NCBI RefSeq assembly: GCF_000519325.1
Contig: NZ_KI912613.1
Location: 13,874 to 48,073 of the forward strand
Direction: 5' to 3'
Length of the DNA: 34,200 bases
Source of the DNA: Patulibacter minatonensis DSM 18081
GTDB taxonomy: Bacteria > Actinomycetota > Thermoleophilia > Solirubrobacterales > Solirubrobacteraceae
Shown here: positions 2 to 10,644 of the stretch, one piece after another
How positions within the stretch are numbered: the stretch's first letter is position 1
Layout of the letters: every line of letters starts with the position of its first letter
Notes under the pieces: generated by a model
Told to the model about the DNA's origin: nothing
Database searches by the model: none
Seen by the model: the letters and a program-made list of their open reading frames with translations, nothing else
Translations under genes and position numbers: made by a program

Positions 2-811
2 GCGACGCTCGACGGCCCGGGCCTCGCACGCGCGGGCCTCGAGTCCGTGGCCGAGAACACCTCCGACGCCGTCGTCGCGCCGTTCGTCTGGGGCGCGCTC
101 CTCGGCGCGCCCGGCGTCGCGGCGCACCGCGCGCTGAACACCATGGACGCGATGGTCGGGCACCGATCGGAGCGCTACGCCCGCTTCGGCTGGGCGTCGG
201 CCCGCGCGGACGACGTCGCCGGCTGGCCCGCGGCGCGGCTGGCGGCCCTGGCGACGGGAGCGGTCGCGGGCGGCCTGGGTCCGGTCGGCGGCCACGACGC
301 CGGGACCCTCGATGGCGGCGCAGGCCGGGACGGCCGTGGCGCGGGCCAGGACGGCGGTGACTTGGGCCGGGACGGCGGCGGCGCGAGCGGGGACGGCGGC
401 AGCGCGAGCGGGGACGGCGGTGACGCGAGCGGGGACGGCGGTGACGCGGGCCGGGCTGACCGTGGCGAGGGCCGCACCGGCGGCAGCGCGGACCGGCCCG
501 GCGGCGGTGCGGCAGTCGGCGGTCCCCGCGCCGCCTGGCGCGCCTGGTGGCGCGACGGGGCCGCACATCCGAGCCCGAACGCCGGGCGCGTCGAGGCCGC
601 ATTCGCCGGCGCACTCGGCGTGCGGCTCGGCGGACGGAACGTCTACGGCGGCCGCGTCGAGGAGCGCCCCGTCCTCGGCGACGTGCCGGGCGCCCGGGAC
701 CCCGAGGCCGACGACCTCGAGCGCGCCGCGCGACTGTCGCTGCGGGTCGGGACGGCGACGGCGGTCGTGTGCGCGGTCGGTGCCGTCCTGATGCGCCGGG
801 CGCGCGGCTAG
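2..811 (+). CDS. cobD: Adenosylcobinamide-phosphate synthase CobD/CbiB, 5'-truncated by the window edge
   Basis: This is the C-terminal part of the integral-membrane enzyme that joins an aminopropanol arm to adenosylcobyric acid in cobalamin synthesis. The frame is open from base 2, so the start lies outside the window. Recognisable family blocks are SVAENTSDAVVAPFVWGALL, the NTMDAMVGHRSERYARFGWA segment, and HPSPNAGRVEAAFAGALGVR followed by LGGRNVYGG. The last residues form a hydrophobic helix ending in MRRARG. Between the ARLAAL segment and the RAAWRAWWRDG block lies a Gly/Asp/Ser-rich insert of roughly 80 residues built on a 7-residue repeat, which ordinary CobD proteins lack. cobQ follows on the same strand after a 323-bp repeat-bearing gap. 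Identification is firm; the effect of the insert is unknown. Confidence 0.93.
   Translation, partial: ATLDGPGLARAGLESVAENTSDAVVAPFVWGALLGAPGVAAHRALNTMDAMVGHRSERYARFGWASARADDVAGWPAARLAALATGAVAGGLGPVGGHDAGTLDGGAGRDGRGAGQDGGDLGRDGGGASGDGGSASGDGGDASGDGGDAGRADRGEGRTGGSADRPGGGAAVGGPRAAWRAWWRDGAAHPSPNAGRVEAAFAGALGVRLGGRNVYGGRVEERPVLGDVPGARDPEADDLERAARLSLRVGTATAVVCAVGAVLMRRARG
320..466 (+). repeat. In-frame 21-bp tandem repeat inside cobD (7 units)
   Basis: Units begin at 320, 341, 362, 383, 404, 425 and 446, exactly 21 bp apart, so the frame is preserved. The three central units share the core GCGAGCGGGGACGGCGG and encode ASGDGG(S/D); the outer units are diverged and encode AGRDGR-, AGQDGGD- and LGRDGGG-like heptads. 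The gradient, with the best-conserved copies in the middle, is what slippage or unequal exchange tends to leave. Confidence 0.9.
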
Positions 812-3229: not shown

Positions 3230-3320
3230 GGGACGGCCTTCCGCGCCGGGCCGGGGGATCCTCCGTACGGTGGTCGCAAGGCCGGCCGCGGCCTTCCCCG
3301 CCCCCGCGCGTGGGCCACCC

Positions 3321-3530
3321 GCCTCCGTGTCGGGTTCGGGACCTCTGCGGTACCGGATCCGACACGCCCGGCCTCGGCCGCCGGACGCCCGCCTCCGTGT
3401 CGGGTTCGGGACCTCTGCGGTACCGGATCGGACACGCCCGGCCTCGGCCGCGGGACGGCCGGCTCCGTGTCGGGTTCGGGACCTCTGCGGTACCAAAACC
3501 GACACGTCGGGACCGGCATGCCGTCCGGCC
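3321..3530. repeat. Three-copy 70-bp tandem array of imperfect palindromes
   Basis: Copies start at 3321, 3391 and 3461, exactly 70 bp apart. Each contains a 39-nt imperfect palindrome (3327-3365, 3397-3435, 3467-3505): left arm GTGTCGGGTTCGGGACC, 5-nt loop TCTGC, and right arm GGTACCGGATCCGACAC in copy 1. Three or four of the 17 pairs mismatch in each copy. Copy 3 carries a different right-arm centre (AAAA), yet keeps the GGTACC and CCGACAC ends. The array occupies the 388-bp gap between the cutA start and the antiporter stop; the rest of the gap holds only the hairpin at 3565-3581. Confidence 0.92.
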
Positions 3531-9449: not shown

Positions 9450-9584
9450 CGGGCCCAGTCTCCCAGCCGGCGGACACGGGCGCGGGCGCCGCCGGATCCG
9501 GGTGCGACGGCCACAGGACGGGTGGGGGGCGGCGGCAGGCGACGTCGTCCCCGGGACCGTCGGGCGGGCGCTCGACGCCGGTGG

Positions 9585-9671
9585 GTGACCGTCCGGTGTC
9601 CCGTTCGTGAGAGCCCTGTGAGGGGTCGTGAGAGCACCGTGAGGGAGCCGTGAGAGGTCCGTGAGGACCAC
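9585..9671. promoter_or_regulatory. Helically phased array of eight GTGAG-type direct repeats
   Basis: GTGAG begins at 9607, 9618, 9628, 9639, 9650 and 9661, preceded in the same phase by GTGAC at 9585 and GTGTC at 9596. Spacings are 11, 11, 11, 10, 11, 11 and 11 bp, about one helical turn. Several units read CCGTGAG, or CTCACGG on the other strand. The array ends about 24 bp before a -10-like CAGATT (9695-9700) of the secreted phospholipase gene. Eleven-bp direct repeats are the usual operator form of PhoB/OmpR-family regulators, including the TCAC-containing PhoP boxes of actinobacteria. Confidence 0.8.
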
Positions 9672-9732
9672 CCCTCGGCGCTGCTCGACGGTGGCAGATT
9701 CGCAGGCACCCCAACCCCCGAGAAGGACCCCG

Positions 9733-10644
9733 ATGCACCTCCCCCGCGTGTCACCCCGACGGCTCCTCGCCGTGCTCCTCGCGCTGCTCTGTGCGGCGTT
9801 CGCCGCCCCCGCCGCCGCCTCGGCCGCGAAGGTCACGGGCCCCGGCCCGTGGAGGGTCGACAACACCTACCTCGTCCGCGCCGACCTCGACGGCCGCACG
9901 AGGCCGAAGCTGAAGCCGGTCGCCCGCGTCGACCACGTCAAGGCGGGCCAGTGGATCCGGATCCAGTGCCAGACCGGCGGCGAGGTCGCCTACGGGTCGA
10001 AGGTCTGGATCAAGACCGGGGGGTTCTACGTGCCCGACCACTACGTCAAGACGTACACGGACGGGCTCCTCGCGAACGTCCCGACGTGCGCCCCCAACCC
10101 GGGCCCGGTGCCCCCGGACCCGTCGCCGACGCCGCCCTACGTCCCGGCGCCGCCGTCCGCGCCGACCCACGACAACCTGGTCGTCATCGCCCGCGCGGTC
10201 GAGTTCGAGGACGTCGGCGGGTCGAACTACGGGCGGTACAAGAAGCTCTACCCCGAGACGCGCAAGGACGTCGACGGGCACAGCATCAACTGGGGGACCA
10301 ACGGCTGCAGCGTCCCCGAGAACCTCGCGAACGCGGAGTTCAGTCTCGCCGGCAAGACGGGCAAGCCGATCAAGTACTACTCGGACCTCTTCGAGAAGTC
10401 CTGCGATCGTCACGACTTCGGCTACCGCAACTTCGGCTCGAAGTCGGCCGGACTGATGGCCGCTCCGACCAAGGCCGGGAAGGACTCCATCGACAGCCGG
10501 TTCAGGTCGAACATGAAGATCCAGTGCGACGAGCGGTTCGACCGCAAGTACCTCGAGGCCGTGCAGCGCGGATTCTGCAAGAAGGTCGCCGACGTCTTCT
10601 ACAAGGCCGTCAGCACGTTCGGCGGGAAGAACTACTACCGCTGA
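9733..10644 (+). CDS. Secreted prokaryotic-type phospholipase A2 with N-terminal SH3-like domain
   Basis: The protein is predicted to hydrolyse the sn-2 ester of phospholipids outside the cell. A signal peptide (basic VSPRR, then LLAVLLALLCAAFAAPAAA) is followed by an SH3b-like segment (about residues 45-115), a Pro-rich linker (about 118-145) and the catalytic domain. The hallmark SCDRHDFGYRNF of prokaryotic PLA2 is present with catalytic His227 and adjacent Asp228; DERFDRKYLEA supplies the partner Asp. NGCSVP and late Cys residues fit the family disulfides. At 303 aa it is about twice the size of the streptomycete enzyme because of the extra N-terminal domain. The ATG has GAGAAGGA upstream. 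Expression is probably controlled through the phased repeat array ending about 60 bp before the start. Confidence 0.88.
   Translation: MHLPRVSPRRLLAVLLALLCAAFAAPAAASAAKVTGPGPWRVDNTYLVRADLDGRTRPKLKPVARVDHVKAGQWIRIQCQTGGEVAYGSKVWIKTGGFYVPDHYVKTYTDGLLANVPTCAPNPGPVPPDPSPTPPYVPAPPSAPTHDNLVVIARAVEFEDVGGSNYGRYKKLYPETRKDVDGHSINWGTNGCSVPENLANAEFSLAGKTGKPIKYYSDLFEKSCDRHDFGYRNFGSKSAGLMAAPTKAGKDSIDSRFRSNMKIQCDERFDRKYLEAVQRGFCKKVADVFYKAVSTFGGKNYYR

What the first reader, a model, noticed from the sequence alone, without database searches (positions are those of the whole stretch)
9585..9671. Eight-unit helically phased GTGAG array controlling a secreted phospholipase A2
Seen: GTGAG-type pentamers recur at 9585, 9596, 9607, 9618, 9628, 9639, 9650 and 9661, that is every 10-11 bp, so all face the same side of the helix. 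Known: PhoB/OmpR-family regulators, including Streptomyces and mycobacterial PhoP, bind TCAC-containing direct repeats with an 11-bp period; normal sites have two to four units. Inference: cooperative loading of such a regulator on eight units controls this gene, possibly linking phospholipid degradation to phosphate starvation.
Basis: partly seen in the sequence, partly recalled or inferred. Interest (0 to 1): 0.78.

Follow-up and report, generated by a model that had tools for sequence, protein, structure and literature searches.

The report
Operator array of a secreted-enzyme regulon
The repeated GTGAG motif before this secreted phospholipase gene is a real, evolutionarily conserved control site, and it very likely belongs to a previously undescribed two-component sensor system that switches on a set of secreted proteins in Patulibacter soil bacteria, not to phosphate control.

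Summary
The array is real. Six exact GTGAG units lie at 9607-9665, spaced 11-10-11-11-11 bp. The two further units claimed (9585 GTGAC, 9596 GTGTC) are degenerate and unconserved. In two Patulibacter relatives the phospholipase A2 (PLA2) promoter has six units in the same register, but with the two distal ones inverted (CTCAC). The odd 10-bp step is the centre of that palindrome.

GTGAGN6GTGAG is a genome-wide motif: 23 hits against 1 for the reversed control. About three quarters of sites face genes for exported proteins (PLA2, trypsin, subtilase, M23 peptidase, RTX).

The likely binder is an OmpR-family response regulator encoded just beyond the window. Its orthologues sit in an operator-RTX-regulator-kinase operon headed by CTCACN6CTCACN5GTGAGN6GTGAG in 16 of 19 genomes (17 of 19 genomes hold that operator somewhere), against 2 of 82 genomes without an orthologue. 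A relative without the regulator has the PLA2 gene but no units.

The phosphate/PhoP reading is not supported: the genome's pst cluster has its own GTTCAC box, and no exact GTGAG pair lies near the three PstS-type genes checked. The architecture-level guess (OmpR-type cooperative direct repeats) is supported. Binding and the activating signal are inferred, not shown.

The parts
9607..9665 (+). operator array: six GTGAG units = three 11-bp direct-repeat (dimer) sites [9607+9618], [9628+9639], [9650+9661]; the 10-bp step 9618->9628 matches the palindrome centre of the relatives' operator
9607..9622 (+). distal dimer site GTGAGAGCCCTGTGAG; in G002/G007 the same positions carry the inverted CTCACN6CTCAC/T
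9628..9643 (+). middle dimer site GTGAGAGCACCGTGAG
9650..9665 (+). promoter-proximal dimer site GTGAGAGGTCCGTGAG, 29 bp before the -10-like hexamer, the spacing that is enriched genus-wide
9585..9600 (+). degenerate GTGAC/GTGTC claimed as units 1-2; not conserved, probably not functional
9692..9700 (+). extended -10-like element TGG-CAGATT (conserved as TGGnAnnnT in three relatives at the same or +1 spacing)
   Evidence: inference that it is the promoter
9733..10644 (+). secreted phospholipase A2 (signal peptide, SH3-like N-terminal part, PF09056 catalytic domain with CDRHDFGYRN motif)

Best explanation
The array is a multi-dimer operator for an OmpR/PhoB-family response regulator that is, as far as I could find, uncharacterised. 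The regulator is encoded at G000:C1:50232-50918, about 2.2 kb right of the window's end. Its gene follows that of a small exported RTX calcium-binding protein and precedes that of its histidine kinase. Each GTGAGN6GTGAG binds a head-to-tail regulator dimer. The canonical operator is a palindrome of two such dimer sites (CTCACN6CTCACN5GTGAGN6GTGAG), which in most relatives also heads the regulator's own operon. Before PLA2 three dimer sites are stacked, ending about 29 bp before the -10, so phosphorylated regulator would load cooperatively and activate transcription of PLA2 together with other secreted hydrolases and exported proteins. Shown by computation: motif, conservation, register, regulon composition and co-occurrence with the regulator. 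Inferred: binding, phosphorylation dependence, activation rather than repression, and the signal (envelope state or Ca2+ are guesses).
For: Genome-wide motif: GTGAGN6GTGAG 23 hits vs 1 reversed control. Six Patulibacter genomes with the regulator together have 77 N6 sites vs 21 at N7 spacing; the two without it have 3 and 3. PLA2 operator conserved in G002, G007 and P. americanus, with six units in identical register in G000/G002/G007; absent in G001, which lacks the regulator. Composite operator 5' of 16 of 19 regulator orthologues >=72% identical and none of 11 paralogues; a 17th (G002) has it on a separate contig beside the genes that flank it in G007. Operator present in 17/19 vs 2/82 genomes with/without the orthologue, Fisher 3e-15. 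An RTX gene lies between operator and regulator in all 18 orthologues with upstream sequence. Independent promoters facing an exported-protein gene: 15/20 (own) and 28/35 (relatives) vs 38/134 pseudo-sites, P = 9e-5 and 4e-8. TANNNT peaks 29-30 bp after the pair, 0 of 2000 shuffles. Regulator keeps PhoP's base-contacting N212, V213 and Y220.
Against: No binding or expression data. A paralogue (G000:C1:2673096) has nearly the same recognition helix and occurs only in the three Patulibacter with the largest GTGAG regulon, so it could share or own some sites, although it has no operator of its own where the upstream is held. In the window's genome the regulator operon carries only one exact pair, not the full palindrome. 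Some sites point away from the nearest exported gene (e.g. L058, L064). Outside Patulibacter the composite operator is mostly confined to the regulator's own promoter. Signal peptides and gene starts are my heuristic calls.
Confidence: 0.8

Rival explanations
1. The array is a PHO box: a PhoP/PhoB-type regulator induces PLA2 on phosphate starvation.
For: OmpR-type 11-bp direct repeats with a TCAC core (GTGAG = CTCAC on the other strand), as in Mtb PhoP TCACAGC and Streptomyces GTTCACC (PMC4832192).
Against: The genome has a distinct GTTCAC x3 box at 11-bp spacing before the winged-helix gene that precedes a PstS-type gene. No exact or one-mismatch GTGAG pair lies near the three PBP_like_2 (PstS-type) loci. 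GTGAG targets are secreted proteins.
Confidence: 0.05
2. A paralogous regulator (G000:C1:2673096 type) with nearly the same recognition helix is the main binder at the exported-protein promoters, or shares them with the RTX-operon regulator.
For: Helix TNVVDVFVGYLRRKLE vs TNVADVFVGYLRRKLE. Found at 68-76% identity only in G002 and G007, which like G000 have 16-23 pairs, while Patulibacter with only the RTX-operon regulator have 6-7.
Against: No GTGAG pair before it in G000 or G007, the genomes where its upstream is held. The PLA2 operator is kept in P. americanus, which lacks it.
Confidence: 0.12
3. A recent tandem duplication (minisatellite-like) with no regulatory role.
For: Alternating AG/GG after GTGAG gives a 21-22-bp higher period.
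Against: Identical register in three species with different spacers and with two units inverted. Genome-wide sites and promoter spacing.
Confidence: 0.02
4. The array acts on the divergent metallo-beta-lactamase-fold gene rather than on PLA2.
For: It lies in the shared intergenic region 9453-9732.
Against: P. americanus keeps the operator before PLA2 without that neighbour. Spacing to the -10 fits PLA2.
Confidence: 0.05

Closest known systems
Mtb PhoP box (TCACAGC N4 TCACAGC) and its tandem-dimer structure (PMC4832192)
   Same: 11-bp direct repeats, TCAC core, cooperative tandem dimer; three of six base-contacting residues kept (N, V, Y), E->D and Y->F conservative
   Different: different unit (CTCAC), palindromic stacking of dimer sites, targets are exported hydrolases, regulator only 186 bits to PhoP
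Mtb PrrA (PDB 1ys6)
   Same: closest solved relative (226 bits), same recognition-helix contact residues
   Different: I found no PrrA operator in the papers searched; no RTX gene is known to me beside prrAB
MtrA boxes of Streptomyces/Mycobacterium (GTNAC-type direct repeats; PMC5650626, PMC6265350)
   Same: direct 5-6-bp repeats one helical turn apart, several cell-wall targets
   Different: half-site GTGAG not GTNAC; regulator below the MtrA equivalog cut-off (195 of 300 bits)
Streptomyces-type PHO box (GTTCACC N4 GTTCACC)
   Same: 11-bp direct repeats bound by an OmpR-family regulator; one exists in this genome
   Different: that box sits before the pst cluster, not at PLA2, and its unit differs

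Membership tests
OmpR/PhoB-family direct-repeat operator | short half-sites repeated one turn (10-11 bp) apart in the same orientation | tested here: met
   N7 spacing near background in most genomes
OmpR/PhoB-family direct-repeat operator | co-conservation with an OmpR-family regulator and presence at its own promoter | tested here: met
OmpR/PhoB-family direct-repeat operator | the regulator binds the sites | not testable with these tools
   needs footprint or ChIP
PHO box / phosphate regulon (PhoB/PhoP) | sites lie before pst-type genes | tested here: not met
   no GTGAG pair at three PBP_like_2 loci; GTTCAC box at one of them instead
PHO box / phosphate regulon (PhoB/PhoP) | regulator reaches the PhoB equivalog cut-off | tested here: not met
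   TIGR02154 186 of 296 bits
MtrA regulon | regulator reaches the MtrA equivalog cut-off | tested here: not met
   NF040689 195 of 300 bits
PrrA family | the regulator groups with PrrA in a tree or reaches a PrrA model | tested here: inconclusive
   closest solved relative is 1ys6, 226 bits vs 186 for PhoP; no PrrA model or tree was used, so membership is open
Prokaryotic secretory phospholipase A2 (PF09056) | domain over the gathering score, His-Asp motif, signal peptide | tested here: met
   63.4 vs 29.4 bits; CDRHDFGYRN aligned to 4aup; signal peptide by heuristic

The most novel reading that the evidence does not exclude
A calcium- or envelope-sensing two-component system, widespread in Solirubrobacterales and operonic with an exported RTX Ca2+-binding protein, controls an exoenzyme regulon through a 37-bp head-to-head pair of direct-repeat dimer sites in which individual dimer sites can flip orientation during evolution without losing register; the RTX protein feeds back on the kinase.
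Probability: 0.2. Interest if true: 0.7.

Novelty: new variant of a known kind. Interest (0 to 1): 0.55.

Why it matters
It gives a concrete operator, a candidate regulator and a target list for a clade (Patulibacter/Solirubrobacterales) for which I found no described two-component regulon. It offers a natural experiment on how OmpR-type operators evolve: three species with dimer sites in the same register, one of them with a whole dimer site flipped. It also makes the link between RTX calcium-binding proteins, a sensor kinase and secreted hydrolases directly testable.

Tried and rejected
Eight-unit count: rejected, units 1-2 are degenerate and unconserved. Phosphate/PhoP: rejected because of the separate GTTCAC box at the pst cluster. 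Array for the divergent MBL gene: the operator is kept without that neighbour in P. americanus. MtrA/PhoB/CseB membership: below the equivalog cut-offs. Literature searches for GTGAG/CTCAC operators and for Patulibacter or Solirubrobacter two-component systems gave nothing relevant. The composite search at 3 mismatches also gives some isolated hits that look like chance (e.g. G038, G069, G070). An unbiased 400-kb sample of the genome held no exact pair at all, which fits their rarity but gave no further targets.

Full report
What is there. The window lies in the 5.52-Mb single-contig genome of a Patulibacter species; the genus is inferred from the record titles of same-genus relatives, among them P. 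americanus DSM 16676. Upstream of a secreted phospholipase A2 (ATG 9733; PF09056, 63 bits) are six exact GTGAG units at 9607, 9618, 9628, 9639, 9650 and 9661. The window holds five 10-11-bp-spaced pairs against 0.17 expected, and no other place in the genome has three consecutive exact units.

It is conserved, and its odd step is explained. Orthologues of the PLA2 in G002 and G007 (67-68% identity) carry CTCAC-6-CTCAC/T-5-GTGAG-6-GTGAG-6-GTGAG-6-CTGAG. Measured from the conserved -10-like TGGnAnnnT, the six units stand at -85, -74, -64, -53, -42 and -31 in all three species. In the window's genome the two distal ones read GTGAG instead of CTCAC. So the single 10-bp step lies at the centre of the relatives' palindrome, and the array is best read as three dimer sites. 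P. americanus keeps four units (CTCAT-6-CTCAC-5-CTGAG-6-GTGAG). G001, which lacks the candidate regulator, has the PLA2 orthologue but none of the units.

It is one member of a regulon. GTGAGN6GTGAG has 23 hits in the genome and 1 reversed control. The motif is spacing-specific: 77 N6 against 21 N7 sites in the six regulator-bearing Patulibacter genomes, although P. americanus (7 vs 5) and G006 (6 vs 6) contribute little to this contrast. Counting each promoter once, 15 of 20 own sites and 28 of 35 in relatives face a gene with a signal-peptide-like start, against 38 of 134 pseudo-sites placed before random genes of the window's genome (P = 9e-5 and 4e-8). Annotated targets are PLA2, a trypsin-like protease, a subtilase, an M23 peptidase, a ferritin-like protein and an RTX protein; most others have no Pfam domain. 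TANNNT hexamers concentrate 29-30 bp downstream of the pair (10 of 64; no shuffle in 2000 reached this). That puts the site just upstream of the -35 region, the usual place for an activator of this family (family knowledge; inference here). Several targets look leaderless.

The candidate regulator. Of about 25 OmpR-type regulators in the genome, only one has an exact pair upstream: G000:C1:50232-50918, preceded by a small exported RTX Ca2+-binding protein gene and followed by a HAMP/HisKA kinase gene. Nineteen genomes have an orthologue at 72% identity or more, with a gap to 63% for the next proteins. Sixteen of these loci carry CTCACN6CTCACN5GTGAGN6GTGAG upstream with at most 4 mismatches (15 with at most 2), and none of 11 paralogue loci does. 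In G002 the upstream is cut by a contig end, but the palindrome is found on contig C85 between the divergent genes seen in G007. All 18 loci with upstream sequence have RTX repeats between operator and regulator, and no paralogue locus does. Across 101 genomes, 17 of 19 with the orthologue and 2 of 82 without it have the composite operator at 2 or fewer mismatches anywhere in the genome (Fisher 3e-15). In the window's own genome these hits lie at target genes, not at the regulator operon, which carries a single exact pair. The genomes are phylogenetically related, so this P value overstates independence.

How it probably works. In the Mtb PhoP-DNA structure a tandem dimer sits on two direct repeats and helix alpha-8 contacts the bases through N212, V213, E215, S216, Y217 and Y220 (PMC4832192). 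Aligned by eye, this regulator has N, V, D, V, F and Y at those positions. The prediction is one head-to-tail dimer per GTGAGN6GTGAG, stacked dimers on the same face of the helix, and activation from the promoter-proximal site at 9650-9665. Activation, phosphorylation and signal are inferences. The constant RTX neighbour, and RTX proteins on both sides of the operator in G007, make extracellular Ca2+ or envelope state reasonable guesses only.

Why not phosphate. The winged-helix gene before a PstS-type gene has GTTCACACCGCGTTCACGGTCGGTTCAC upstream, a Streptomyces-like PHO box, and no exact or one-mismatch GTGAG pair lies in any of the three PBP_like_2 loci. The regulator fails the PhoB cut-off.

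Limits. No binding or expression data exist here. A paralogue with almost the same recognition helix occurs in just those three Patulibacter with the largest number of sites and may share them. Gene starts and signal peptides were called by simple scripts. The literature held is open-access only; finding nothing on this system does not prove that nothing is published.

Noticed in passing
outside window, L289 about 690-722 (G000:C1 about 3351861-3351893): Three GTTCAC repeats at 11-bp spacing before a winged-helix gene that precedes a PstS-type gene: a Streptomyces-like PHO box in Patulibacter.
   Followed up: partly
G000:C1:2673096-2673770 (L291), G007 and G002 homologues L292, L293, L299: Paralogous response regulator with nearly the same recognition helix, preceded by an exported-protein gene in G000 and G007 C121; found only in the three Patulibacter with the most GTGAG sites and without a GTGAG operator where the upstream is held.
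   Followed up: partly
G000:C1:2729510-2729707 (L040): A stretch 86% identical to PLA2 residues 194-259 lies inside a 1172-aa open frame: a PLA2-like domain in a much larger protein.
   Followed up: no
L278 (G007:C29:29000-30900): Two divergent exported RTX-protein genes flank the composite operator of the regulator operon.
   Followed up: partly
L256, L258, L273, L283, L057, L060: Many regulon genes appear leaderless: TANNNT lies about 6-10 nt before the start codon.
   Followed up: no
window 314-512, 851-1027 and 3318-3506: Tandem repeats of 21, 61 and 70 bp (the last 2.7 copies, 93% matches).
   Followed up: no
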